37,030 bases of DNA from Lachnospiraceae bacterium (GTDB lineage Bacteria; Bacillota; Clostridia; Lachnospirales; Lachnospiraceae), in the NCBI GenBank assembly GCA_024694965.1, contig JAILJC010000180.1, forward strand, positions 1-37,030, read 5' to 3'. A program made the position numbers and the translations under genes. Below the pieces are notes generated by a model. It was not told the origin of the DNA. It searched no databases and was given only the letters and a program-made list of their open reading frames with translations. Shown here one piece after another: positions 203-37,030 of the stretch. Position 1 is the stretch's first letter, and the number at the start of each line of letters is the position of its first letter.

Positions 203-314
203 AATTATTTGTTGTCTGAAATCCCATATACTTTACCATAAAAGTTTAGCAGGTTATATTGAAATGGCCTTAAATTGCAATAATGGGATCAGCAGGGCTC
301 GAACCGTGCTAGGC

Positions 315-333
315 AAACATCCCCCGGATGTTT
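315..333 (-). repeat. Hairpin 2 of the tRNA insert
   Basis: This is a perfect 8-bp inverted repeat on the minus strand, AAACATCC and GGATGTTT around a GGG loop. It has the same architecture as the hairpin at 366-384. The two stems differ at two positions and both differences keep pairing. It lies in the variable region of the tRNA-Val gene. Confidence 0.8.
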
Positions 334-365
334 AGGTCTCCGTTTCACTTCGGTCCGTCCAAAAC

Positions 366-384
366 CAACGTCCCCCGGACGTTG
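366..384 (-). repeat. Hairpin 1 of the tRNA insert
   Basis: This is a perfect 8-bp inverted repeat on the minus strand, CAACGTCC and GGACGTTG around a GGG loop. A flanking GGTCC (386-390 region) can also pair with a GGACC further along the insert, so the hairpin may sit inside a larger fold. It pairs with hairpin 2 (315-333) as a two-copy structural repeat separated by 32 bases. Confidence 0.8.
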
Positions 385-481
385 TGGACCCTTTTCGCAC
401 GTCAAGCGAATGCTCTCCCAGCTGAGCTATGATCCCATTGCATATATTTTAACATAGATTGGGCTTTTAATGGAGAGAACT

Positions 482-24872: not shown

Positions 24873-27800
24873 ATGAGAAACAAACGTATTATTTCATTGA
24901 TCCTTACGGCGGTTCTCGGGATTACGTCCGCAGCTTTCCCTCAGACGGTTTTCGGAGTGGAGATTGCGGACGGTACATCATACGAAACTCTTGAGGACAC
25001 AAGTCTGTCGGAAAACTGTGAGGAGGACATTCTTGAAGAAGGCGCCCTGGATGCGGGCCTTGAAGATGCAGTTACGGAGAATAAAGGAGTTTCCGCAGCC
25101 GCGGGAGTTTCCGCCGGCGAGCGAAGGGGTATAAATGTTCAGGATACGGAAGACATAAACATTGATAATGAGCCCGATGATGATTGGCTTAAGCCTGAAT
25201 TTACCGTAGACGGGCGGATCGTTCCGGTATTTGATCCGGCCAATGCACCCAATAAGGGTCACTTTACTTATCAGCTGTCCAGGTATGATGATAAGGGTGA
25301 AATTGAAAGGGTTTTCTACTTCATTCGTGATAACATAGAGAACCTTAAAACACTTCGCTGGAGACAGTCATATTTTGACAAAAGCGGAAAATACGAATGC
25401 TATATCAAGGTTGAAGGTGCTGAAGAAGGATATAACGGGAAGTTTTTCAGCAACACCATAGATTACGTTATACCTTCCACGAGGCTTTCAACCCCGGCAA
25501 ACCTTAAGGTAACCGACAGGGACGGCGTTGAATGGCTTGAATGGGATGAGGTGGAAGGAAGCAAAGGTTATCTCGTAGACATACTGCCGGATGGCGCATC
25601 AGAAGATGATAACCTTCCGTTTGATGTCGATATAAATGAGTTTAATTTAAGTTCTTTTGCGGAAACTTACGGATCAGGCAAATATTCCATAAAAGTTTTG
25701 GCCAATTCAGGTAATATAAACGAGATACGCTGCAGTGAACCTGCATCTGTTACATGGACGCCTGCCAGCAAAATGACGGTTACCCTTGATAAGGACAGTC
25801 TTTGGCTTGCAACCGGCAGCAGTGCGCTTATAACACCTAAGTTTGCCAATGTATCGGACAAGGATGACAGGACGCTTATATGGATGACATCCGATTCTTC
25901 GGTCGCTTCTGTTGATCAGTCCGGAAATGTTACTGCGATAAATGCAGGAAAGGCCGTTATTTCCGTAAAGACGGGAGCCGGCATACCTTCAACGAACACT
26001 TGTGAAGTTACGGTATATGAGCCGATAAAGTCCATTACACTTGACCCTGAATCTGCTACAATAGGTACGGGTGACGCGTTTACCTTACGTGCGGATGTGG
26101 GAGCTTATACACCTACGGGAACCACCGTCACAACGACGGGAGGTGCCGTTGTGGTATCAGGACCGGCCATATCCTTTGAGGCTTCTGATTCAAACCTTAC
26201 AGTCACCAATCAGGGTGGCGGCAGGGCGCTTGTTATAGCGGCAGCTTCCATACCGGGTGACAAGTCAACGGTAGAATCACAGGTTATCGTAAAGTCAACG
26301 GACGGAGGCAATAAGCAGGCTATATGCAAAGTTACCATAGGAGTAAAGGCTGAAAGCATTGAGATAACTGCTCCGGAAGGCTTAAAGATACTCAATAAGG
26401 GAAAGAAACTCGCTCTTACCGCAAAGGTAACTCCCGCAAATGCGATCAGCGACAGGATAAGATGGATAAGTTCCGACAGCAGGATAGCTACGGTTGACTC
26501 AAAAGGAAATGTTACAGCCGTTTCGGGCGGAGACGTAACTATTGTTGCATATGATGATTTCAGTAGAAAACATGCATCATATGCACTTAAGGTGGTTGTG
26601 CCTTTAAGTAAGCTTAGTCTTAATGCAACAAATATCACTCTGCATTCGGGTAAATCATTTACCTTAAAGCCGGCGCCTGTACCTGAGGATGCGACGATCG
26701 AGGGTGAGGCTGTATTCAGTGTTGTAAGCGGCGAAAGCTCATATATTAAACTTGAAGGCGGAAAGATCACGGCACAGGCCCTTCCCGAGGGTGTGAAAAA
26801 GGCTGTGGTCAAGGTAGGCGTTAAGGTTAAGGATGTAACGGGCGCGGAAAAGGAAGCCGTATGCACTGTCAATGTTGTAAGTACCGAGGTTAAGGTAAGC
26901 AAGGTTACACTTAAGCCTTCTAAAGCTGACATGGGCATCGGGGCGGTAAAGACGATAAGGGCAGCTGCGGCACCGGAGTGGGCAGATAACACTGAGCTTG
27001 AATGGAGCGTTTCCGAAGAAGGAAAAATAAGCTTCACCGTAAATCCTGACGGAAGCATACGTGTTAAGGCATTAAGCGCTGGTACAGTAAAGCTTACCGC
27101 AACAGCGAAGGATGGCAGCAATAAGAAGGCTGTATGTACGATAAAGATAGGTAATCCGGTAGAAAGCGTGAAGATAGATAAATCCAAGCTTTCTCCTTAT
27201 CTGGCCGTGGGCAAGTCGATTAAATTAAAGGCCGATGTTTCGGCTGCAAGCGGTAAACCCGCTAACAAATCGCTTGTATGGACAAGCAGTGATGCCAGTA
27301 TCGCATCGGTGGATGCCAAGGGTAAAGTCACAGCTAAGGGTGTCGGAATTGTTACGATAACAGCTACTGCCGAAGAGCCTGACGGAGGTTTTGCAAAATA
27401 TGACAGCTGCACATTCAGTGTATGCGTTCAGGTTAAGAAGGTAGCACTTGCGGATAAGGCTGATAAGAAGCCTACGTTGATGGAAGGTAACAGCTTAGAG
27501 ATAAACCCTGTAATTGTGACTCCTTCGGAAGCTACATATAAGAGTATTTCATGGACAAGCAGTAACGAAGAGGTGGTGGTCGTGGATACCAAGACAACCT
27601 CAAGCGGAATGAAGTTAAAGTTTTCAGCCGTTGCCCCCGGGACCGCAAAGCTGACCGGTATCACAACTGACGGGAGCAAAAAGAAGGTTGTTGTTACCGT
27701 TAAGGTCCTCGGACGCATGCATGAGGAAGACGTAAAGCTTAATATTAAGAGCAGTCCGAAAGGCACAACCGTTACGGATAACAATTCCAAGGCAGTGAAG

Positions 27801-28025
27801 GTTACGGGACTTAGTGCCGGTAAAAAACAGAAATTTACGCTTACACCGGTATTGACAGCCAGGGCGGCTGATAAGAGGGTCAGCTTTATAAGCTCCGATC
27901 CTAACGTTGTAACTGTCGACGGGAAAGGCAAGGTTACTGCCGTCGGTACAGGGTCGGCTGTAATAACCATGACAACATCTGACGGAAATTATACGGCAAC
28001 ATGCACAATAAGCACAGTAGAGTAA
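24873..28025 (+). CDS. Secreted multi-domain Big_2 (Ig-like) surface protein
   Basis: The 1050-residue protein has a signal peptide (about residues 1-28, cleavage near VFG-VEIA), an acidic linker rich in Glu and Asp, a fibronectin-like segment (about 205-295) and eight bacterial Ig-like Big_2 domains starting near 298, 385, 492, 577, 676, 762, 853 and 953. Typical signals are LIWMTSDSSVASVDQSGNVTA and ITATAEEPDG or IWT/WTSSD-x-IASVD patterns repeated along the chain. No LPXTG, transmembrane or S-layer anchor is visible at the C terminus (ends CTISTVE). Big_2 arrays act as stalks or adhesins on the cell surface. The membrane protein gene downstream overlaps it by 25 bases, which suggests a common transcript. 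Confidence 0.9.
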   Translation: MRNKRIISLILTAVLGITSAAFPQTVFGVEIADGTSYETLEDTSLSENCEEDILEEGALDAGLEDAVTENKGVSAAAGVSAGERRGINVQDTEDINIDNEPDDDWLKPEFTVDGRIVPVFDPANAPNKGHFTYQLSRYDDKGEIERVFYFIRDNIENLKTLRWRQSYFDKSGKYECYIKVEGAEEGYNGKFFSNTIDYVIPSTRLSTPANLKVTDRDGVEWLEWDEVEGSKGYLVDILPDGASEDDNLPFDVDINEFNLSSFAETYGSGKYSIKVLANSGNINEIRCSEPASVTWTPASKMTVTLDKDSLWLATGSSALITPKFANVSDKDDRTLIWMTSDSSVASVDQSGNVTAINAGKAVISVKTGAGIPSTNTCEVTVYEPIKSITLDPESATIGTGDAFTLRADVGAYTPTGTTVTTTGGAVVVSGPAISFEASDSNLTVTNQGGGRALVIAAASIPGDKSTVESQVIVKSTDGGNKQAICKVTIGVKAESIEITAPEGLKILNKGKKLALTAKVTPANAISDRIRWISSDSRIATVDSKGNVTAVSGGDVTIVAYDDFSRKHASYALKVVVPLSKLSLNATNITLHSGKSFTLKPAPVPEDATIEGEAVFSVVSGESSYIKLEGGKITAQALPEGVKKAVVKVGVKVKDVTGAEKEAVCTVNVVSTEVKVSKVTLKPSKADMGIGAVKTIRAAAAPEWADNTELEWSVSEEGKISFTVNPDGSIRVKALSAGTVKLTATAKDGSNKKAVCTIKIGNPVESVKIDKSKLSPYLAVGKSIKLKADVSAASGKPANKSLVWTSSDASIASVDAKGKVTAKGVGIVTITATAEEPDGGFAKYDSCTFSVCVQVKKVALADKADKKPTLMEGNSLEINPVIVTPSEATYKSISWTSSNEEVVVVDTKTTSSGMKLKFSAVAPGTAKLTGITTDGSKKKVVVTVKVLGRMHEEDVKLNIKSSPKGTTVTDNNSKAVKVTGLSAGKKQKFTLTPVLTARAADKRVSFISSDPNVVTVDGKGKVTAVGTGSAVITMTTSDGNYTATCTISTVE

Positions 28026-29854
28026 AAAAAATATACTTACCAAACGGATACTGGATCCCGACCGCTGCTGCGGTCGGGATTATTCCGCTTATAACAGGCG
28101 TATACTTTTATACGAATGATGTTCTGGCCGGATACCCGTGGTTCCTTCCTTCAAGCTATTATTCGTCGGATGTTTTTCTTGCATATAAATCTTTTGCAGT
28201 TCAGATACTTATGGCGGTAATGATAATTGCCTCTGTTTTCAGGGTGCTGAAAACAAAGGAAAAGCCATGTGTTGACAAGTCGTTTCTGTTGTTTATCCCA
28301 TATCTTTTCTTTGTGGTGCTTTCGGGGATCTGTTCGAAGTATCCGGCACTTTCTTTCGGAACATCTTATGACAGGTTTGAACCCGTCGGAGTTGTTGTAT
28401 CATATGCGGTGATATGCACGTATTCATATCTGTTTATCGATTCCGAAAGTCAGCTTAAAAAAGTCATATATCTGTGCGCCGTATCTTATGCCCTGATGAT
28501 GATCATCGGTCTCCTGCAGGGTCTGGGTGCAGATCCCTTTAATACCGAATTTGTAAGCCGGCTTTTAACACCCGCCGGTATGCGTGACGGATCCGGAAAG
28601 ATAGCGGTAATGCGGTACGGGAAAGTGGCTTACTGTACACTGTACAACGAGAACTATACCGGAGTATATCTTTCAGTCATGCTTCCCGTATGTGTTATGA
28701 TCGCTTCATTACGAATAAATAAATATCTTCGGATCGCGGCAGGAGTGCTGGCAGCAGTTTCACTGTTTGTATTGTACAGGAGCGGATCGATGTCGGCCGT
28801 GATAGCCCTTGGGGTTTCGGTATTTGCGGTATTTATGTTAAGGATGTATCGAAAAATGGGTGTAAAAGCGCTTGCGGCTGCAGCCGCGGTATTTATCGCA
28901 GTCATTCTGGCCGTACTCATCGTACCCGCATTGCGATCCCGCGTAAGTGAAAAAATATCCGGAAAAAGCAGGTATCCGTACGGAAGGATAGTTGATATGG
29001 ATACAAAAGACGATGAGGTGGTATTTTTCTTCTATTCGGGGAATGAGCTGCACTGCAGGTTTGATTTTACGGATGACGGTGAGATAAGGCCCGAGTTTTG
29101 GGATAAGGAAGGAAGAACCTTAAAAACATCATACAGCGACGGAGTGTACAGTCTGGATGAGTGCTTTGAGTACGCTTTTGCCGCGGTAAAGGGTGAACCC
29201 ACGGGACAGCCCGGGGTATATGTAGCGTCATTTGTCATAGACAATCATCAGTGGCCTGTAACAAACTGCACAGACGGTACGTATTATTATGTAACATCAG
29301 GTCTGTGCCTGGTTAAATATCCAAAGATAATTTCGGCAGGGTTATTTCCGGATGAATTTTTAAGCGGACGTGGTGCCATATGGAACAGGAGCATTCCCGT
29401 ACTGAAAAAGCATTTTCTGCTGGGATGCGGTTCGAATCTTTTTATCACGGATTATCAGCAGGATGATTATGTGAGAAAAACATATTCGGTAGGCTGGGGA
29501 AGCTTTGAGTATGATGTTAAACCTCACAGCTACTATATCTGCACATGGATGGAGAGCGGATTTCCCGCATTGCTTTGCATTATTGCTTTCTTCCTGTATT
29601 ATATTATAAAAGGAGCACGTTTATACGTGAGCATCGATCTTAATGACGAAACCCTTATGTACGGGTCAAGGATAGGACTTGGCATGTATATCGGCTGCAT
29701 CGCATATATGATCATTGTTGCGGCAAATGACAGTATCGTATGCACGGCACCCGTATTCTGGGGTGTTCTGGGTATGTCGATAGCTTTAAATGAACGGCTT
29801 AATATGATCAAGGGGCAGGATAGTGGGAAGGGACAAAGAAATAAGCGAGAATAA
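28001..29854 (+). CDS. O-antigen ligase/polymerase-like (Wzy_C) membrane protein
   Basis: This 617-residue polytopic protein has several membrane helices up to about residue 310, a mostly hydrophilic, beta-rich insert (about 315-450) and a C-terminal membrane part. The Wzy/WaaL-like core is visible as SGRGAIWNRSIPVLKKHFLL followed by GCGSNLF, then PHSYYICTWMESGFPALL. Such proteins join lipid-carried glycan units to each other or to acceptors at the outer face. The ATG at 28001 lies within the end of the surface protein gene, with only a weak binding site, and no other usual start codon occurs soon after. It overlaps the permease gene at its end by 32 bases. It may glycosylate or assemble surface glycan for the Big_2 product; that is inference. 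Confidence 0.75.
   Translation: MHNKHSRVKKIYLPNGYWIPTAAAVGIIPLITGVYFYTNDVLAGYPWFLPSSYYSSDVFLAYKSFAVQILMAVMIIASVFRVLKTKEKPCVDKSFLLFIPYLFFVVLSGICSKYPALSFGTSYDRFEPVGVVVSYAVICTYSYLFIDSESQLKKVIYLCAVSYALMMIIGLLQGLGADPFNTEFVSRLLTPAGMRDGSGKIAVMRYGKVAYCTLYNENYTGVYLSVMLPVCVMIASLRINKYLRIAAGVLAAVSLFVLYRSGSMSAVIALGVSVFAVFMLRMYRKMGVKALAAAAAVFIAVILAVLIVPALRSRVSEKISGKSRYPYGRIVDMDTKDDEVVFFFYSGNELHCRFDFTDDGEIRPEFWDKEGRTLKTSYSDGVYSLDECFEYAFAAVKGEPTGQPGVYVASFVIDNHQWPVTNCTDGTYYYVTSGLCLVKYPKIISAGLFPDEFLSGRGAIWNRSIPVLKKHFLLGCGSNLFITDYQQDDYVRKTYSVGWGSFEYDVKPHSYYICTWMESGFPALLCIIAFFLYYIIKGARLYVSIDLNDETLMYGSRIGLGMYIGCIAYMIIVAANDSIVCTAPVFWGVLGMSIALNERLNMIKGQDSGKGQRNKRE
28055..28080 (+). repeat. 11-bp terminator-like inverted repeat inside the Wzy-like frame
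   Basis: ATCCCGACCGC (28055-28065) and GCGGTCGGGAT (28070-28080) form a perfect GC-rich hairpin with a TGCT loop, 29 bases after the surface protein stop codon. TATTCC follows instead of a T-run. It lies within the first codons of the membrane protein, which here encode part of its first helix. Confidence 0.7.
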
Positions 29855-30980
29855 ACGGACTTTTTCCGCTGCTTGTATCGTTGCGGGTAACGGTATAGGC
29901 AGCGGTGTCATGGCTATACCGTACTTTGTGGTGCGCGCCGGGATCGTTGGAGGCGTGCTTGCTTTTCTGCTTGCCTATCTTGTCAGCGTACTCATGCATC
30001 TTATGATAGCCGAGCTTATGCTACATGAGGACAACGTGTCGGATATCCTTGGGGTTTTTAATACATATCTTTTTAAAGGCCGGGCCGGAGGAGCCTTAAG
30101 GCTTTTATTCTTTGTTATCCTTGTGGTGGTTCTTGAAGCCAACCTTGCCGCTTATATTTCGGGTGCGGCCGATATTATCACTCCGCTCATAGCGGTAAAG
30201 GGGGCTGTTATCCGTATAGTATTTTATGTTGTCGCCGCACTTGTTGTACTTTTGGGACTTAAGGCTGTTGCTGCGGGTGAGGGTGTTACAGTCATACTGA
30301 TGACGGCCATTCTGGTAACTGCCGTTGTATTCTCGGCTGCCAATATAAACGCTGATGCAGGCATGGTAATATCCGGAAGCTTAAAAGGCTTTGCTGCTCT
30401 GTTCAGTATGATAATGTTTTCATTTTCCGCGATATTTGCCGTTCCACAGTCGGTTGAATATCTTAAGAGGGAAGTCAAGCCGGTACGCAGGTCTATTCAG
30501 CTTGGCCTGCTTATAAACCTTGTCCTGTCGGTTACGGTGGCAGTCTGTACTATCATAACTTCGAAAGAGGTGACAGAGATAGCGATAGTCGGGTGGGCCG
30601 ATGCGGTAGGAGGAACCGTCAGGATACTGGGTTCCCTGTTTATCGTATTCGCTATGCTTACATCCTTCTGGTCGATAGGGCTTGCCTCGTCGGATATCGT
30701 TTCTGTGCAGACAGGGCTTAAAGGGCGGATAGCCTTTGCGATAGCCACGGTACCCGCGCTTATCCTGACCTTTGTAAGCGGCAGCGGGTTCATGGGATAT
30801 CTTAAGATAGTAGGCGGTGCGGTAGCACTTATCATTTCGCTGATGGTCATACCGAGCTTTGTGATATGCATGAAAAACAATGATAAACCTGCGCTGATGA
30901 ACAGATTTGAAAAGTCGAAATATGCGGTCGCTTTTGTGCTTGTGATGTATCTGGTCATGGCCGTGGGATCCGTATTCTGA
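29823..30980 (+). CDS. Amino acid permease, aromatic (HAAAP)-like
   Basis: This protein of 385 residues has about eleven membrane helices and belongs to the amino acid/polyamine transporter superfamily. The N-terminal pattern VAGNGIGSGVMAIPYFVVRAG resembles the substrate-contact helix of Mtr, TnaB and TyrP, the hydroxy and aromatic amino acid permeases. A cytoplasmic loop with VPQSVEYLKREVKPVRRSI follows helix six. Import by cation symport is expected; substrate is not certain. The start is GTG at 29823 with GGGGCAGGA upstream, within the preceding gene's end (32-base overlap). It stops 11 bases before the first radical SAM gene, so it is probably part of the same unit and may feed it substrate or move its product. 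Confidence 0.75.
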   Translation: MGRDKEISENKRTFSAACIVAGNGIGSGVMAIPYFVVRAGIVGGVLAFLLAYLVSVLMHLMIAELMLHEDNVSDILGVFNTYLFKGRAGGALRLLFFVILVVVLEANLAAYISGAADIITPLIAVKGAVIRIVFYVVAALVVLLGLKAVAAGEGVTVILMTAILVTAVVFSAANINADAGMVISGSLKGFAALFSMIMFSFSAIFAVPQSVEYLKREVKPVRRSIQLGLLINLVLSVTVAVCTIITSKEVTEIAIVGWADAVGGTVRILGSLFIVFAMLTSFWSIGLASSDIVSVQTGLKGRIAFAIATVPALILTFVSGSGFMGYLKIVGGAVALIISLMVIPSFVICMKNNDKPALMNRFEKSKYAVAFVLVMYLVMAVGSVF

Positions 30981-30991
30981 AGGGGTAAGAT

Positions 30992-32329
30992 ATGAAGGTT
31001 GCTTTTCTTGCTCCCGCGGGGGCAATGCACAGATACAACGGAATGTTCCATAAAAACCTGCACTATGCGCCGATAACACTGGCTCTGCTTGCAGCACTGC
31101 TCCCCGCTGAACTTAACGCGGAACCTGTGATATATGACGAGACGGCAGAAGCGATACCGCTTGACCTTAAGGCGGATGTGATCTGTATAACCTGCATCAC
31201 GGGAACAGCAGAGCGCAGCTATCGTTTCGCGGATTATTTCAGAAGCAGGGGGATCCCGGTAATTATAGGAGGCGTACATGCAACCGTGATGCCCGATGAG
31301 GCAAAGCAGCACGCTGACTGCGTGATGGTAGGGCTTGGGGATGAAACTTTCCCGCAGGCCATGCGTGATCTTGCGGCGGGCAGATTAAAGGAGTTTTACT
31401 ACGGACATTCCTGTGTTGATATTTCGGGCCGGCCGATACCAAGAAAGGATCTGCTTAAAAAAGACAGGTACATCACGCTTAATACCGTAGAGTGCGTCAG
31501 GGGCTGCAATCACGCATGCTCTTTCTGTGCTTATCCAACGGCATTCGGAAAACACGTGATAACAAGGCCCGTAGAAGATGTCATAGCGGAGATAAAGACA
31601 TTTAAGGGTAAGATAGTCATCTTCCCTGACGTGAATCTTATAGCGGACATAAAGTATGCAAAAGAACTGTTCACTGCCATGATACCGCTTAAGAAGTGGT
31701 GGTTCGGGCTTACAACGACAGCGATAGGGCATAACGATGAGCTTCTTGCCGTATTTAAAAAGAGCGGGTGTAAGGGCCTGCTTTTGGGATTTGAGTCGGT
31801 CAATCAGGAAACGCAGAAGGACATAAACAAGGGCGTCAATACGGTGAACGAATATGACTGGATCATGCAGAAGCTTCACGATCACGGCATACTTGTCATG
31901 GGCTGCTTTGCATTCGGAAGCGATGAGGATCATACGGATGTATTTAAGCGTACGGCACAGCTTTGCCTAAGCGCAAAGATCGATCTGCCCAGGTTTTCGA
32001 TAATAACTCCGTTCCCCGGAACACCATTCTATAACGAACTTAAGGAACAGGACAGGATAACCGAGGATGACTGGGCGCTTTACGATGTGGAACATGTTGT
32101 GTATAAGCCTAAGAACATGACCAAACAGGAACTCGAAAGAGGTATCGAAGAAGCCTGGATGATGTGTTATTCGTGGAAGGCGATATTTCAGAGGTTCGAT
32201 TTTAAGCGGATCAAGCGCTGGTTTTTCATCTATCTCTTATGCAACATAGGTTACCGCAAATATGCGAAGAACTTCAATAAATATGATGAAAGCGTAATGA
32301 CCGATAACTCGGATATACCGGAGGTTTAG
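30992..32329 (+). CDS. Cobalamin-binding-type radical SAM enzyme 1
   Basis: This 445-residue enzyme has an N-terminal B12-binding-like Rossmann domain (about 1-150, with GGVHATVMPDE and HADCVMVGLGDETF) and a radical SAM barrel (about 165-370) whose 4Fe-4S cluster cysteines are C172, C176 and C179 in GCNHACSFC. The layout is that of the BchE/HpnP class B group, whose members do methylations, ring closures and C-C bond chemistry. The classic DxHxxG cobalamin ligand is absent, as in much of this group. It is the most divergent of four neighbours: IFPDVNLI replaces the DDN motif of the others, and the KWW motif near residue 360 is absent. The start follows AAGGGG. Confidence 0.88.
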   Translation: MKVAFLAPAGAMHRYNGMFHKNLHYAPITLALLAALLPAELNAEPVIYDETAEAIPLDLKADVICITCITGTAERSYRFADYFRSRGIPVIIGGVHATVMPDEAKQHADCVMVGLGDETFPQAMRDLAAGRLKEFYYGHSCVDISGRPIPRKDLLKKDRYITLNTVECVRGCNHACSFCAYPTAFGKHVITRPVEDVIAEIKTFKGKIVIFPDVNLIADIKYAKELFTAMIPLKKWWFGLTTTAIGHNDELLAVFKKSGCKGLLLGFESVNQETQKDINKGVNTVNEYDWIMQKLHDHGILVMGCFAFGSDEDHTDVFKRTAQLCLSAKIDLPRFSIITPFPGTPFYNELKEQDRITEDDWALYDVEHVVYKPKNMTKQELERGIEEAWMMCYSWKAIFQRFDFKRIKRWFFIYLLCNIGYRKYAKNFNKYDESVMTDNSDIPEV

Positions 32330-32334
32330 CATCT

Positions 32335-33666
32335 GTGGCGAAAACACGGATAGCATTCATAAAAGTCAATATGATGTATTCAAAAGGGAAGGACGCGCTA
32401 AAGCCCCTCGTTTTTCCCATAGTGGAAGCATTAACGCCGGATGATTTTGACATAAGCTTCTACGATGAACGGATAGAATCACTGCCGGATAAGCCTGATG
32501 CGGACATAGTGGCATTTTCGGTTGAAACTTTCGCCGCAAAACATGCATATGAACTGGCGGATAAGTATAAGAAGTACGGTCTGCGTACTGTCATGGGAGG
32601 CTTTCATGCTTCCGCTATGCCGGATGAGGTACTAAAGCATGCCGACACCGTCCTTGTAGGTGATGCAGAGGATACATGGGTTTCATATCTTGAAGATGTG
32701 AAAAACGGCTGTGTGAAACAAAGATATGATTCAAAGAATCAGTGTTCCATGGCCTGTGTTAACAACAACTCACATTGCTTTGACGGCAAGAAATACTTAA
32801 GGCTCGGCATGGTGCAGGCCTCCAGGGGCTGTAAGTACAACTGTGATTTCTGTTCGATAAAGAGCCTGTATCCGTCAGGCGTCAGACAGAAGGATATAGA
32901 TGATGTCATAAAAGAGATAAAAAACAGCAGGGAACGGCTAATTTTTTTTATAGATGACAACCTGTTCGTAAATGAGAAAACGGCAAGGGAGCTGTTTACT
33001 GCGATGCGTCCGCTTAAGAAACGCTGGGCATGCCAGATCAGCATGGATATCGCGTTCAATGACGAACTGCTTACGCTCATGCGTGAATCGGGCTGCATCA
33101 TGGTGCTTATAGGGTTTGAATCGCTTAACGCAAAAAACCTCGAACTTATGCATAAGAGTGCCAATATCGGTGTCAAGGATTACGAAGCCGCGATAAGAAA
33201 TATTTACAGGCACGGAATAATGATATATGCGATGTTTGTGCTCGGATACGATCATGACACGGCCCGGTCCATTAAGGAGACCTATGAATTTGCAATGAAG
33301 AATCATCTGGCCGTGGCGAATTTCAATCCGCTTATGATCCTGCCGGGAACCTCGCTGTATAAGCGAATGGAAGAGAAGGGCTTAATGAGGTTTGATAAAT
33401 GGTGGCTTGACGATGAGTACAGGTACGGGGATGCAATGTTTTACCCTGAGTCCATGACCTGTGATGAGCTCATGGAGGGCTGCAGGGCAGCAAGATATGA
33501 CTTTAATACATTCCGAAACATCTTAAAAAGGATGTTCGGGGCAAAAGTCAATCATCAGGGAGTGTTTGGATCCATTGTGTTCGTGCTCATAAATCTTATC
33601 TCACGTTCGGAGATACACAGGAAACAGGGTGGTTTTCTGGGCAGCGTCATGAAGGGGGATACTTAA
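32335..33666 (+). CDS. Cobalamin-binding-type radical SAM enzyme 2
   Basis: The 443-residue protein has the same two-domain layout: B12-binding-like domain with MGGFHASAMPDEVLKHAD and VLVGDAEDTW, then radical SAM barrel with C166, C170 and C173 in GCKYNCDFC. It shares with enzymes 3 and 4 the motifs VETF-x-A (near residue 62), F-I/V-DDN after the cluster site, GFES, a proline-glycine-threonine loop (LPGTSLY) and KWW near residue 358, so these three are a recent subfamily. The start is GTG at 32335 with GGAGG upstream, five bases after enzyme 1. The substrate is unknown; the close sequence kinship suggests related steps or alternative substrates. Confidence 0.88.
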   Translation: MAKTRIAFIKVNMMYSKGKDALKPLVFPIVEALTPDDFDISFYDERIESLPDKPDADIVAFSVETFAAKHAYELADKYKKYGLRTVMGGFHASAMPDEVLKHADTVLVGDAEDTWVSYLEDVKNGCVKQRYDSKNQCSMACVNNNSHCFDGKKYLRLGMVQASRGCKYNCDFCSIKSLYPSGVRQKDIDDVIKEIKNSRERLIFFIDDNLFVNEKTARELFTAMRPLKKRWACQISMDIAFNDELLTLMRESGCIMVLIGFESLNAKNLELMHKSANIGVKDYEAAIRNIYRHGIMIYAMFVLGYDHDTARSIKETYEFAMKNHLAVANFNPLMILPGTSLYKRMEEKGLMRFDKWWLDDEYRYGDAMFYPESMTCDELMEGCRAARYDFNTFRNILKRMFGAKVNHQGVFGSIVFVLINLISRSEIHRKQGGFLGSVMKGDT

Positions 33667-33702
33667 GCGGAAGGGGTCCATATTACGATCGGAGAGAAGA
33701 AG

Positions 33703-35160
33703 TTGAAGATAATCCTTATAAAACCCAATATCGGAAGGCGGGAACACAGCCTGTACGTTGACAATGCGAGCATGGAACCGCTGCAGCTTGGCATCCTTGC
33801 CGCGCTGACACCTCCGGATATTGAAGTTAAGATGTATGATGACCGCCTTGAACCCATACCGTATTCCGAAGCTGCGGACCTTGTTGCGATAACGGTCGAG
33901 ACATTTACTGCGAGACGTTCGTACGAGATAGCGGATGAATACAGGAGGCGGGGCATTAAGGTTCTGATGGGCGGTATGCATGTCAAACTGCTGCCCGGGG
34001 AAGTAAAGGGACACGCCGATTCCGTCATGATAGGCGATGCCGAGGATAAATGGAAAGAAATGACGGATGATCTGAAGGCGGGAACGCTTAAGGAAGTATA
34101 TGAATGCGCACCCGTGTGTGTTCCGCAGAAGGGCGTGATCACCCGGAGGGATATCTACAAGGGTAAGAAATACATGCCGATATCCCTCCTCCAGTATTCA
34201 AGGGGCTGTAAGTATAACTGTAAATACTGTGCGAGCAGCGTGTATTTTGGGCAAAGGCACTTTACAAGGGACGTTGACGAAGTGGTGACAGAGATAAAGT
34301 CACAGAAGAGAAAGCTCTTGTTCTTCGTGGATGACAATATAGTGGGAGATAAAGAACGTGCAAAGGAGCTGTTCCGTGCTCTCATTCCCTTAAAGGTACG
34401 CTGGGTCAGCCAGGGCAGCCTTGATATGCTCGATGACGATGAGCTTATGAGGCTCATGGTAAAAAGCGGGTGTCTCGGACTTGTGATCGGATTTGAGTCG
34501 ATAAAGCCCGAAAGCCTTGACTATATGCATAAGGGTGTCAACAAAAAGTATGTTTCCAACCATTATGCCGAGGCTGTTGAAAAACTGCGGCACTACGGCC
34601 TGCAGACCTGGGCAGCTTTCACTATCGGGCACGATACGGATACGCTTGAGTCGATAGAAGCGACCTATGACTTTGCAAGGAGGAACAAGTTTACTTTTGC
34701 GGCTTATAACATACTTATGCCTTATCCCGGCACCGCACTGTATGACCAGCTTAAGGCCGAGGACAGGCTGTTATATGGCGGAAAGTGGTGGCTTCACGAG
34801 CAGTACAGGTTCAATTATACTGCGTTTGTACCCAAAAACATGACGGCGGATGAGCTTACGGAGGCGGGCTTTTCGTGCAGGCGCAGGTTTAACAGCGCAG
34901 GTTCCATACTTTACAGGATGCTTGAACCGCGGACCAACTTAAGGAATCCGGTGAGGTTTTTCACTTATCTTATATATAATCCCGTGTTTAAGAAGGAAGT
35001 GTTCGAAAAGCAGGGAATGACCTTCGGCTGTAAGGAGAAGGACGATAATGAAGGTGACGTTCATACTGCCGGCGATAGGCAGGAAGAAAAACGAGAAATA
35101 TCTGAAATCCTGGCTGATGGAACCGCTGACCATCGCCGTGATGAACACGCTGCTTCCTGA
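33703..35160 (+). CDS. Cobalamin-binding-type radical SAM enzyme 3, with extended C terminus
   Basis: The frame gives 485 residues from a TTG start at 33703 (GGAGAG upstream). It has the B12-binding-like domain (MGGMHVKLLPGEVKGHAD, VMIGDAEDKW) and the radical SAM barrel with C169, C173 and C176 in GCKYNCKYC, plus FFVDDN, GFES, YPGTALY and KWW. The sibling proteins end soon after the position matching KQGMTFGC. Here the frame continues for about 40 more residues, very polar, through the first 113 bases of enzyme 4. A TAA at 35046 overlapping the next ATG lies in another frame, so the original stop may have been lost by a small indel. Function is as unknown as for enzymes 2 and 4. Confidence 0.85.
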   Translation: MKIILIKPNIGRREHSLYVDNASMEPLQLGILAALTPPDIEVKMYDDRLEPIPYSEAADLVAITVETFTARRSYEIADEYRRRGIKVLMGGMHVKLLPGEVKGHADSVMIGDAEDKWKEMTDDLKAGTLKEVYECAPVCVPQKGVITRRDIYKGKKYMPISLLQYSRGCKYNCKYCASSVYFGQRHFTRDVDEVVTEIKSQKRKLLFFVDDNIVGDKERAKELFRALIPLKVRWVSQGSLDMLDDDELMRLMVKSGCLGLVIGFESIKPESLDYMHKGVNKKYVSNHYAEAVEKLRHYGLQTWAAFTIGHDTDTLESIEATYDFARRNKFTFAAYNILMPYPGTALYDQLKAEDRLLYGGKWWLHEQYRFNYTAFVPKNMTADELTEAGFSCRRRFNSAGSILYRMLEPRTNLRNPVRFFTYLIYNPVFKKEVFEKQGMTFGCKEKDDNEGDVHTAGDRQEEKREISEILADGTADHRRDEHAAS

Positions 35161-36376
35161 AGAGGTGGACAGGGAATTTTACGATGACAGGATAGAAGGT
35201 ATCAATTATGATACTGAAACCGATCTTGTGCTGATAACGGTCGAAACATACACGGCAAAGAGGGCATACCATATAGCCGGAGAATTCAGGAAACGCGGCC
35301 GAAAGGTGGTACTTGGCGGATATCACGTGACCCTTATGCCCGATGAAGCCCTCGAATACTGTGATGCGATAATGATAAACAACTGCGGTGCGAACATGCG
35401 CTCGCTGATCGAAGATCTTAAGGGAGGGGTACTTAAGGATCGATATGTGGGCAGTCCCTGCATAGATTACAGGATAGCCGACCGCTCGATATATGCGGAT
35501 AAGCTTAATAAGTACCTGCCGGTATCCTTAGTGGAAACCGGCCGCGGATGCTACCATAACTGCGAGTTCTGCTCGATCGCAAAGTATTATGATTCAAAGT
35601 ATATACACCGCGAGGTTTCAGACATCATCGCGGAGATGAAGTCGTGCAGGCATAAGCTGTTTTTCCTTGTCGATGACAGTATTTTTTCCGACAGGGCTTT
35701 TGCACGGGAATTATTCACCGAGATCAAGAAGCTCAAGGTTACATGGACAACGCAGATAACCCTTGATATAGCCAGGGATGATGAGGCATTGCGGCTTATG
35801 CATGACAGCGGCTGTACCATGGTTCTCATAGGTTTTGAATCTATAAACATGGACAACTTAAAGCAGATGAACAAAGAGTGGACACAGCGCCTCGGGGAGC
35901 GTGACGAGCTTATCGAGAAGATCCATGCAGCCGGTATAAGCATCTATGCTTCTTTTGTGTTCGGCTTTGATGAGGATACCGAGGAAAGCTTTAAGCGCAC
36001 GCTTGAGTTCACGAGAAAGCATCAGTTCTTTGTTATAGCGTTCAACCATCTGCTGACTTTCCCGAATACGCCGACTTATAATGCCTTCCGTGACGAGGGC
36101 AGGCTTATTTCCGACAAGTGGTGGCTGCAGGAGGGGTATACCTTCGGGACGATATCCTTTAGGCCGAAGCGTTTAAGTGCCGAGGAACTGCGTGACCTGT
36201 GCCGTAAGTATAAAAAGGAATTTTTCCGTTTTGGCTCTATAGTAAGCAGGGGAATGACGTGCTTAAAACGCACCAGAAACCCGCTCATAAACTTTGCGTA
36301 CTGGTTTATCAACATCCTTTTCCATTTTGAGGTTGATAAAAGAATAGGGATACCGGTCGGCGAAAACATGGATTAA
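35048..36376 (+). CDS. Cobalamin-binding-type radical SAM enzyme 4
   Basis: This 442-residue protein repeats the family layout with C168, C172 and C175 in GCYHNCEFC, FLVDDS, GFES, FPNTPTY and KWW. The N terminus MKVTFILPAIGRKKNEK is full length for the family, and AAGGAG at 35032-35037 lies ten bases upstream, so the ATG at 35048 is well supported despite the 113-base overlap with enzyme 3. One difference: GGYHVTLMPDEALEYCDAIM is followed by INNCGANM instead of the VGDAED of its siblings, and PNT replaces PGT in the later loop. Its cobalamin site or partner contacts may therefore differ. A GNAT-like gene follows after 34 bases. Confidence 0.88.
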   Translation: MKVTFILPAIGRKKNEKYLKSWLMEPLTIAVMNTLLPEEVDREFYDDRIEGINYDTETDLVLITVETYTAKRAYHIAGEFRKRGRKVVLGGYHVTLMPDEALEYCDAIMINNCGANMRSLIEDLKGGVLKDRYVGSPCIDYRIADRSIYADKLNKYLPVSLVETGRGCYHNCEFCSIAKYYDSKYIHREVSDIIAEMKSCRHKLFFLVDDSIFSDRAFARELFTEIKKLKVTWTTQITLDIARDDEALRLMHDSGCTMVLIGFESINMDNLKQMNKEWTQRLGERDELIEKIHAAGISIYASFVFGFDEDTEESFKRTLEFTRKHQFFVIAFNHLLTFPNTPTYNAFRDEGRLISDKWWLQEGYTFGTISFRPKRLSAEELRDLCRKYKKEFFRFGSIVSRGMTCLKRTRNPLINFAYWFINILFHFEVDKRIGIPVGENMD

Positions 36377-36377
36377 G

Positions 36378-36397
36378 CGCCGCATGATCCTGCGGCG
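36378..36397 (+). repeat. 7-bp GC-rich hairpin before the acyltransferase gene
   Basis: CGCCGCA (36378-36384) and TGCGGCG (36391-36397) form a perfect stem with a 6-base loop, right after the enzyme 4 stop and right before the GGGGAG binding site. No T-run follows, so it is more likely an RNA-processing or translation element than a terminator. Confidence 0.5.
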
Positions 36398-36410
36398 AAA
36401 GGGGAGAGGC

Positions 36411-37030
36411 ATGGATTTTTGCTTTGCAACGCATGATGATGCGGCGGGCATTCTTAAGATAATGGAAGAGGATACGGCTCCCGGAGGGCTAAAACTTCTT
36501 TATACAAGACGCTCTGACCCGTGCGCTTCTTTTATTAGTGAGAGCGGCGATTCGGTAGCGGGAGTCATAAAAAGGAGCGGTGAAGTTATCGCGACGATAG
36601 CCGCAATACCGAGGTCCATGTATATAAACGGAAGTAAAAGAAGGGTCTGTTATGTGACTAACATGAAGCGGCTTAAGGGAATCGATACAGCCATTAACTG
36701 GTATGAAGCGTTTGATAAGATGTGTAAGAAGGTTAACTGTGACAGTTATTTCTGTTCGCTTATAACCGGAAATGACGATGTATCCAGAATGCTCCATAAA
36801 AAGCGCAGGTTCATGCCTTATGCCGAAAGGCTGGCGGCATACAGGACATATATAATAAACCCTAAGGTCCGCATAAAGGCAGGGCCGGCGGGAACAGAGT
36901 TTGTTAAGGCCGCCGCGGATGACGAAAGCGGGATCGTTAGTTTTCTTAACGAAAACGGCAGAAAGAAGAATCTCTTCCCGGCCTTTGACAGGCTGTCCGA
37001 TCTCGGGGATTTAAAGGCGGAGGACTTTTA
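36411..37030 (+). CDS. GNAT-like acyltransferase, partial at right edge
   Basis: An open frame of 206 codons begins at ATG 36411 behind GGGGAGAGG and runs off the window. It opens MDFCFATHDDAAGILKIMEE, followed by a strand pair around AGVIKRSGEVIATIAAIPRS and MYINGSKRRVCYVTNMKRLKG. That pattern of an N-terminal helix, a beta sheet and a segment leading to an acyl-CoA site is what GNAT-fold N-acyltransferases show, though the pyrophosphate-binding loop is not clear-cut (LKGIDTAINWYEAF). Identification is therefore tentative. It is 34 bases after the fourth radical SAM gene and likely in the same operon, so it may acylate the product or substrate of that pathway. Confidence 0.6.
   Translation, partial: MDFCFATHDDAAGILKIMEEDTAPGGLKLLYTRRSDPCASFISESGDSVAGVIKRSGEVIATIAAIPRSMYINGSKRRVCYVTNMKRLKGIDTAINWYEAFDKMCKKVNCDSYFCSLITGNDDVSRMLHKKRRFMPYAERLAAYRTYIINPKVRIKAGPAGTEFVKAAADDESGIVSFLNENGRKKNLFPAFDRLSDLGDLKAEDF

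What the first reader, a model, noticed from the sequence alone, without database searches (positions are those of the whole stretch)
29823..37030. Four tandem cobalamin-type radical SAM enzymes with permease and acyltransferase: candidate new pathway
Four full-length paralogues in a row, all with intact CX3CX2C sites and B12-binding-like domains, are uncommon. Three form a recent subfamily (VETF, DDN/DDS, KWW motifs), the first is older. Gaps are 11, 5, 36 and 34 bases with one overlap, so they act together. No precursor peptide gene is visible, so a peptide product is not supported. Options are fatty-acyl or membrane lipid coupling (long dicarboxylic diabolic acids are known in Butyrivibrio and bacterial membrane-spanning lipid synthases are radical SAM enzymes), or alkylated amino acids (aromatic-type permease). 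Both are speculative.
Basis: partly seen in the sequence, partly recalled or inferred. Interest (0 to 1): 0.72.

Follow-up and report, generated by a model that had tools for sequence, protein, structure and literature searches.

The report
Mobile four-enzyme radical SAM biosynthesis cassette
A rumen bacterium carries a set of four related radical enzymes plus an acyltransferase, and the same set, in other gene orders and with extra amide-forming genes, turns up in five bacterial phyla and on one plasmid, which points to an undescribed pathway for a small molecule.

Summary
Four intact B12-type radical SAM genes (A-D; 30992-36376) follow a Trp/Tyr-family permease and precede a GNAT-like acyltransferase (acylT1) that runs past the window end. 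They are not a recent expansion: in trees of 89 and 86 proteins A, B, C and D are old separate groups, each with Bacillota, Chloroflexota and Planctomycetota members (A, C, D also Omnitrophota). The set recurs in other orders and, once, on a Citrobacter portucalensis IncF plasmid (c9-GH3-A-D-acylT1-B-C). A search by acylT1 alone found A and D beside it in 16 of 30 new genomes. A-D-acylT1 is the core, B-C an add-on. Of 37 loci with the core, 17 have the permease, 18 have GH3 (amide synthetase) and/or c9, none both, 2 neither. One genome has GH3 and acylT1 in one open frame. The window genes reach no curated family cut-off; no RiPP precursor is conserved; no sequence match to tetraether synthase appeared. 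Best reading: a horizontally moved pathway in which radical SAM enzymes rebuild an acyl or amino-acid skeleton and GNAT/GH3 enzymes form the amide. Substrate, product and B12 use are inferred. Structure prediction could not be run.

The parts
29823..30980 (+). permease, Trp_Tyr_perm family (PF03222), first gene of the unit in this layout
   Evidence: Pfam 62.2 bits, cut-off 22; permease of this family in 17 of 37 loci that hold A, D and acylT1
30992..32329 (+). radical SAM A (group A, core)
   Evidence: PF04055 71.2 bits, PF02310 45.3 bits; group A in trees
32335..33666 (+). radical SAM B (group B, add-on pair with C)
   Evidence: PF04055 59.4, PF02310 36.5; one clade, SH-aLRT 97
33703..35160 (+). 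radical SAM C (group C, add-on pair with B; TTG start)
   Evidence: PF04055 66.1, PF02310 30.3, below cut-off; one clade, SH-aLRT 98
35048..36376 (+). radical SAM D (group D, core); overlaps C by 113 bases
   Evidence: PF04055 69.8, PF02310 25.7, below cut-off; 27 of 28 D rows together, SH-aLRT 89
35549..35572 (+). CX3CX2C [4Fe-4S] site of D (Cys 168, 172, 175), invariant
   Evidence: alignment A4 of 22 proteins
36384..37030 (+). acylT1, GNAT-like acyltransferase, cut by the window end (complete at G000:C11 base 37472; likely true start 36411)
   Evidence: complete copy L058:385-1473; GNAT model PF00583 matches 10 of 24 family members at E up to 0.05, best 2e-5, not the window's own copy at E up to 0.1

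Best explanation
The block is one biosynthetic cassette that moves between bacteria as a unit. Its core is radical SAM A, radical SAM D and the GNAT-like acyltransferase acylT1; B and C are an add-on pair. Shown: the linkage, the orthology of each gene, purifying selection, the enzyme superfamilies, and presence across phyla including one plasmid. Inferred: A and D carry out 5'-deoxyadenosyl-radical chemistry (C-methylation, C-C bond formation or rearrangement) on an acyl or amino-acid precursor, B and C add further such steps, and acylT1 (with GH3 and c9 in most other lineages) makes amide bonds, so the product is a radical-modified N-acyl amino acid or related acyl amide. In Lachnospiraceae the permease stands in for GH3/c9, most simply by bringing in the amino-acid building block. 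Confidence: about 0.9 that it is one linked, horizontally moved biosynthetic unit; about 0.4 for the amide-type product.
For: Tree of 89 proteins: A, B, C and D each hold Lachnospiraceae, Chloroflexota and Planctomycetota, and A, C, D also Omnitrophota (support 94, 95, 99, 82). Tree of 86: B one clade (97), C one clade (98), A+E against B+C+D (100). Orders differ while linkage stays: permease-A-B-C-D-acylT1 here; desaturase-B-C-A-D-acylT1-c9-GH3 in L049; A-D-desaturase-acylT1-rSAM-B-C-c9-GH3 in L052; A-C-D-acylT1-c9 in L053. Citrobacter plasmid NZ_CP134684.1: c9-GH3-A-D-acylT1-B-C-PAP2. acylT1 search without rSAM information: A and D on the same strand within 8 kb in 16 of 30 new genomes, c9 in 17, GH3 in 17. 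GH3 and acylT1 in one 926-codon open frame in L108. acylT1 is GNAT-like; GH3 domains N, M and C. Permease only 17, c9/GH3 only 18, both 0, neither 2 of 37 loci (one duplicate contig removed). An esterase/thioesterase-like gene lies between permease and A in L035 and L039. Distances co-vary over 22 loci: A-D r 0.77, D-acylT1 0.62, A-acylT1 0.41, each 0 of 2000 permutations as high. No small ORF family beside the array is shared by more than 4 loci.
Against: acylT1 also occurs without A or D: 12 of 30 genomes had neither near it on the stretch fetched. GH3 and c9, the strongest amide argument, are absent from the window's cassette; the window's genome has no GH3 match, and only 1 of the 11 array-bearing genomes of the genus has one. 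The GNAT call for acylT1 rests on weak matches and for c9 on less. The permease/GH3 split mostly follows lineage, so it may be history and not substitution. Desaturase, Rieske, AurF, P450, PAP2 and SPASM-rSAM neighbours in other phyla would equally suit a lipid product. B12 binding by C and D is below the Pfam cut-off. Co-variation of distances is also expected from plain vertical descent. No structure, substrate or product datum exists.
Confidence: 0.42

Rival explanations
1. Membrane-lipid modification: the four enzymes couple, methylate or ring-close fatty acyl chains (diabolic acid, ladderane-like or hopanoid-like chemistry), and acylT1 transfers the chain.
For: Best-scoring curated models for the window genes include HpnJ and rSAM_ladder_B12; fatty acid desaturase genes lie beside the unit in Chloroflexota, several Planctomycetota and Citrobacter; Butyrivibrio is reported to hold diabolic-acid lipids (passages of PMC13274423).
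Against: Scores are far below cut-offs (HpnJ at most 107 of 577.6 bits, ladder at most 81 of 360). Chain coupling is assigned to Mss, described as resembling Tes; the rSAM profile finds no Tes entry at E up to 1e-5. The Zn-ribbon of the Tes family is found in 0 of 37 genomes of the genus, but that model may not cover bacterial Mss. Only 11 of 37 genus members carry the array.
Confidence: 0.22
2. Modification of an imported free amino acid (alkylated or rearranged aromatic amino acid), with acylT1 as an N-acetylating release or self-protection step; no fatty acyl part.
For: A permease of the Trp/Tyr family heads the unit; the smallest variants are permease-A-D-acylT1 (L060) and the same with a second A-like gene (L076); acylT1's weak curated matches are mainly aminoglycoside N-acetyltransferases.
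Against: The permease is seen only in Bacillota loci here; GH3 and desaturases elsewhere fit acyl chemistry better. The tryptophan C2-methyltransferase is only a distant match (E 6e-11).
Confidence: 0.22
3. RiPP pathway: the radical SAM enzymes modify a ribosomal peptide encoded nearby.
For: Several B12-type radical SAM enzymes occur in some RiPP clusters (recalled); the ApyD model matches 18 of 22 members, but at 42-55 of 750 bits in the window genes.
Against: Gaps are at most 36 bases; 539 ORFs of 20-90 codons flanking 15 Lachnospiraceae loci gave no family shared by more than 4 loci, and the families printed lie inside or opposite longer genes. A distant precursor gene was not searched for.
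Confidence: 0.05
4. Anti-phage or other defence island with radical-made nucleotides or lipids.
For: Candidate PADLOC model PDC-M51A matches B (44.8 bits), D (34.4) and A (16.5).
Against: Probably a general radical SAM resemblance; no other defence model in the six proteins at E up to 0.001; conserved linkage is to acyl-transfer genes.
Confidence: 0.04

Closest known systems
AprD4 (apramycin radical SAM enzyme, PDB 6fd2)
   Same: Nearest solved structure by profile, E 1.5e-21 over about 200 residues of the radical SAM core
   Different: AprD4's own NCBIfam model scores 30-58 of 500 bits in the window genes
HpnJ / BchE (TIGR03471, TIGR02026)
   Same: HpnJ is the top curated match of each window gene; both models match 22 of 22 members, as do the PhpK and TIGR04013 models
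   Different: At most 107 of 577.6 and 93 of 481 bits in window genes
Ladderane-type rSAM (TIGR04072)
   Same: B12-binding/radical SAM protein named for lipid biosynthesis; matches 21 of 22 members
   Different: At most 81 of 360 bits in window genes
Tes / Mss lipid-coupling radical SAM enzymes
   Same: Radical SAM enzymes; mss genes reported in Clostridia (passages of PMC13274423)
   Different: No Tes entry among solved-structure matches at E up to 1e-5
N-acyl tyrosine clusters (stieleriacine and relatives)
   Same: N-acyltransferase as the hallmark gene; stieleriacines come from Planctomycetota
   Different: Passages of PMC12479983 name ThiF and nitroreductase genes in the kyonggic and thalassotalic acid clusters; 'radical SAM' and 'GH3' occur 0 times in its main text

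Membership tests
Radical SAM superfamily with B12-binding-like domain | CX3CX2C site | tested here: met
   102 of 102 proteins examined; PF04055 above cut-off in all four window genes
Radical SAM superfamily with B12-binding-like domain | B12-binding domain PF02310 | tested here: inconclusive
   A and B above, C and D below the gathering score; GGxH motif in 101 of 102
Cobalamin-dependent C-methyltransferase | bound cobalamin and methyl transfer | not testable with these tools
   no biochemistry; structure predictor busy at all 14 attempts
HpnJ | NCBIfam equivalog cut-off 577.6 bits | tested here: not met
   92-107 bits in the four window genes
BchE | NCBIfam equivalog cut-off 481.35 bits | tested here: not met
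   69-93 bits
Ladderane-type rSAM_ladder_B12 | NCBIfam equivalog cut-off 360 bits | tested here: not met
   59-81 bits
AprD4 | NCBIfam equivalog cut-off 500 bits | tested here: not met
   30-58 bits
Tes/Mss lipid synthases | sequence relation to solved Tes | tested here: not met
   profile A4 found 5 solved sequences at E up to 1e-5, none named as Tes; Mss sequences themselves were not at hand
RiPP cluster | conserved precursor peptide gene beside the enzymes | tested here: not met
   539 small ORFs compared, none shared by more than 4 loci
GNAT N-acyltransferase (acylT1) | GNAT profile match | tested here: inconclusive
   10 of 24 members match PF00583 at E up to 0.05, best 2e-5; the window's own copy matches no family at E up to 0.1
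GH3 acyl-amide synthetase (neighbour in other phyla) | GH3 N, middle and C domains | tested here: met
   L052 and L129 copies above cut-off for all three

The most novel reading that the evidence does not exclude
A class of natural products built without PKS, NRPS or ribosomal precursor: a simple acyl or amino-acid precursor is remodelled by two to five dedicated B12-type radical SAM enzymes and amidated by GNAT/GH3 enzymes, in a cassette that moves between phyla and works both in anaerobes (permease form) and in facultative or aerobic hosts (GH3, desaturase form).
Probability: 0.35. Interest if true: 0.85.

Novelty: new variant of a known kind. Interest (0 to 1): 0.72.

Why it matters
Radical SAM enzymes do chemistry that is hard to reach otherwise, and most B12-type members have no known substrate (recalled). 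Here the same four orthologues, with a shared partner gene, recur in five phyla in different orders and on a plasmid, so function can be approached by subtraction: A-D-acylT1 alone, plus B-C, plus E, with permease or with GH3/c9. Likely cultured hosts exist (Butyrivibrio sp. NC2007 and CB08, whose records are not titled MAG; Citrobacter portucalensis 64A:C), so the product can be sought directly.

Tried and rejected
Rejected: membership in the HpnJ, BchE, ladderane-type, AprD4 and PhpK models (window genes far below cut-off) and close kinship to solved methylases such as TsrM, TokK or CysS; RiPP; riboswitch control near the array (one match, a tRNA, in 142,508 bases of six stretches); an E. 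coli home for the plasmid cluster (no match in 20,395 records in 'near' mode); wider plasmid spread (one record). Of the nine plasmid records with a relative of A only three were opened; the second and third have a lone radical SAM relative without acylT1, c9 or GH3. The upstream Wzy_C and Ig-like genes (28001-29854, 24873-28025) were left out of the unit because among the loci compared they are shared only with L034; gene c13 downstream is shared only with L034 and L035. Neighbours in other phyla (Rieske, AurF, FA_desaturase, PAP2, SnoaL-like, P450, M28, PALP, SPASM rSAM) were annotated but not forced into a pathway. A first gene caller missed genes in GC-rich contigs and was replaced by profile searches of open frames.

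Limits of counts: alignment A1 used 16 of the acylT1 copies seen; A4 used 22 of 89 radical SAM proteins. The 86-row tree left out 11 loci (near copies, duplicates or fragments) and rows under 330 residues or 300 bits; one D row (L102, long branch) falls outside D and one A row (L076, second copy) falls with E. The distance test used 22 of 26 loci, four near copies dropped. L074 is the same contig as L050 and is not counted twice. c9, GH3 and permease were counted anywhere on the fetched stretch. In one search the fused GH3-acylT1 of G994 (L108) was scored as having no neighbour; with it GH3 would be 18 of 30. Genome samples are drawn evenly from larger groups, overlap slightly, and include genomes from which the profile was built. 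My first notebook entry calls the window a whole contig; that is wrong, it is the first 37,030 of 181,777 bases.
Full report
WHAT IS THERE. The window is bases 1-37030 of a 181,777-base contig in a 2.76-Mb, 228-contig assembly, 88% complete; close relatives are rumen Lachnospiraceae and Butyrivibrio. The finding's coordinates hold: permease, four radical SAM genes named here A, B, C and D, and a GNAT-like gene cut by the window end, whose remainder was read from the same contig. All four radical SAM proteins match PF04055; PF02310 (B12-binding) is above cut-off for A and B and below for C and D. None of the four reaches the cut-off of an NCBIfam model listed; HpnJ scores highest for each, at under a fifth of its cut-off. 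The nearest solved structures by profile are AprD4 (E 1.5e-21), 9ccb, a tryptophan C2-methyltransferase, TokK and CysS.

IT IS KEPT. Against L034, the nearest species, dN/dS is 0.025 to 0.048 for A-D and about 0.11 for acylT1 and the permease, with dS near saturation. Within the genus 11 of 37 genomes carry relatives of B at E up to 1e-40, and 9 of these hold A, B, C and D on one contig, one of them cut inside D. One genome (G010, L060) has only permease-A-D-acylT1. A fifth paralogue, E, sits between A and B in some Butyrivibrio and alone on another contig in this genome. In the genus, E-type matches occur in 6 of 11 array-bearing and 0 of 26 other genomes (five of the six confirmed by profile or tree, the one in G005 not fetched; Fisher p 2e-4, not corrected for kinship).

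IT IS OLD AND TRAVELS. A search of genome contigs with B found 24 loci: 15 Lachnospiraceae, 3 Planctomycetota, 2 Chloroflexota, 3 Omnitrophota and one Peptococcaceae; two of the Omnitrophota and the Peptococcaceae hold only distant relatives without the unit. In a tree of 89 radical SAM proteins the window's four genes fall in four separate groups, each holding Lachnospiraceae with Chloroflexota and Planctomycetota, and A, C and D also with Omnitrophota; SH-aLRT 94, 95, 99 and 82 for A, B, C and D. A second tree with more genomes (86 rows) keeps B (97) and C (98) as clades and separates A+E from B+C+D at 100; D and A each have one stray row. So the four genes were already distinct before they reached these phyla, and the trio B-C-D is not recent.

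THE NEIGHBOURHOOD IS SHARED, THE ORDER IS NOT. Layouts: permease-A-B-C-D-acylT1 in the window and its relatives, with E between A and B in some, with an esterase/thioesterase-like gene between permease and A in L035 and L039, and again in a Bacillota genome of another family (L134); E-B-C-A-D-acylT1 in L077; desaturase-B-C-A-D-acylT1-c9-GH3 in a planctomycete (L049); A-D-desaturase-acylT1-rSAM-B-C-c9-GH3 in an Anaerolineales genome (L052); A-C-D-acylT1-c9 with GH3 further on in an Omnitrophota genome (L053); A-D-acylT1-c9-GH3 without B and C in six Planctomycetota (L104, L106, L111, L112, L113, L123), in L122 and L132, and with GH3 further on in L121. A tblastn of A against plasmids matched 9 records, one with the whole set: Citrobacter portucalensis 64A:C, IncFIB/IncFII, typed mobilizable, with c9-GH3-A-D-acylT1-B-C-PAP2 and, divergently, a fifth radical SAM and a fatty acid desaturase. 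This is a fifth phylum and direct evidence of carriage on a plasmid. It is a single record, and no E. coli genome record matches it in 'near' mode.

TEST WITHOUT THE RADICAL SAM GENES. Profile A1 of acylT1 alone was run over sampled genomes: Lachnospiraceae 3 of 397 (E up to 1e-20), Chloroflexota 3 of 301, Planctomycetota 20 of 343, Omnitrophota 4 of 237, Bacillota 6 of 299, the last four at E up to 1e-15; these counts include the genomes behind the profile. Of the 30 hit genomes not used for the profile, 16 have A and D on the same strand within 8 kb, two more have D at a contig edge, 17 have c9 and 17 GH3, and 12 have neither A nor D. Nine loci that hold only outlying radical SAM relatives or solitary E have no acylT1, c9 or GH3 match. 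The association is therefore strong, but acylT1 also has a life without A and D.

WHAT THE PARTNERS SAY. acylT1 is GNAT-like: 10 of 24 members match PF00583 (best 2e-5), one matches the aralkyl acyl-CoA:amino acid N-acyltransferase C-terminal family (E 4.5e-4), and solved-structure matches are weak (acetyltransferases E 0.03 upward, N-myristoyltransferase E 0.56). c9 has no family; its profile aligns weakly to acylT1 (E 2.5e-4, probability 43%). GH3 is clear. In one planctomycete contig (L108) GH3 and a full-length acylT1 lie in one 926-codon open frame without a stop, which ties the two functions together, though it is one case at a contig end. Permease and c9/GH3 exclude each other: 17 loci permease only, 18 c9/GH3 only, none both, 2 neither, of 37 distinct loci with A, D and acylT1. 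This split mostly follows lineage. In the genus GH3 is present in 3 of 37 genomes, one of them array-bearing, and c9 in none (the second search has no positive control of its own).

READING. Recalled knowledge: GH3 enzymes join a carboxylic acid to an amine through an adenylate, and GNAT enzymes transfer acyl groups from CoA, often to nitrogen. Together with an amino-acid permease in the form that lacks GH3, the parts point to an acyl amide, most simply an N-acyl amino acid, whose carbon skeleton is changed by A and D and further by B and C. Loss or decay falls on the add-ons: C is broken by stops or a frame change in L036 and L040, L057 has a C fragment and no B, L043 has an E remnant, while A, D and acylT1 read open in these loci where the contig holds them whole. 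Which radical reaction is done, and whether cobalamin is bound, cannot be told.

AGAINST. Desaturase, Rieske, AurF, P450 and PAP2 neighbours in other hosts also suit a lipid. The GNAT evidence is weak, and absent for the window's own copy taken alone.

PRINT. Searches in which I saw no description of such a cluster: (open-licence full texts only; judged from titles and abstract openings of the listed papers; some searches found more papers than they listed). Papers seen in passages: PMC13274423, PMC11868695, PMC12479983, PMC12078418. Others only in listings.

CHECK. On re-reading the calls I mended wording and a few attributions; no probability needed changing.

Noticed in passing
window 284-436, minus strand: A tRNA gene (anticodon reads GAC, Val) with about 80 extra bases in the variable region, holding two GC-rich hairpins; ARAGORN misses it. 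Genome G003 has the same tRNA with one such hairpin (L148), and part of the insert recurs elsewhere in the genus, twice near other tRNA genes (L145, L149).
   Followed up: partly
L129 (Citrobacter portucalensis plasmid NZ_CP134684.1): Full cassette on an IncFIB/IncFII plasmid from a gull isolate; an alpha-2-macroglobulin gene upstream and a large Ig-like protein gene downstream lie within the same 29 kb.
   Followed up: partly
L108:1-2778: GH3 and acylT1 in one 926-codon open frame in a planctomycete, at a contig end.
   Followed up: yes
L041:2646-15066: In Butyrivibrio sp. CB08 the permease-A pair is separated from E-B-C-D-acylT1 by a minus-strand gene and a block whose first gene clusters with ABC ATPases.
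   Followed up: no
L036:4890-6335 and L040:4407-5819: Gene C is broken by stops or a frame change in two related rumen MAGs.
   Followed up: partly
L103, L105, L109, L117: Planctomycetota loci with acylT1, c9 and GH3 but no A-D on the stretch fetched, beside Rieske, AurF or desaturase genes: perhaps a related amide pathway without radical SAM steps.
   Followed up: no
L035:7273-8640 and L039:7217-8584: An alpha/beta-hydrolase with esterase/thioesterase-like matches sits between permease and A in two loci.
   Followed up: no
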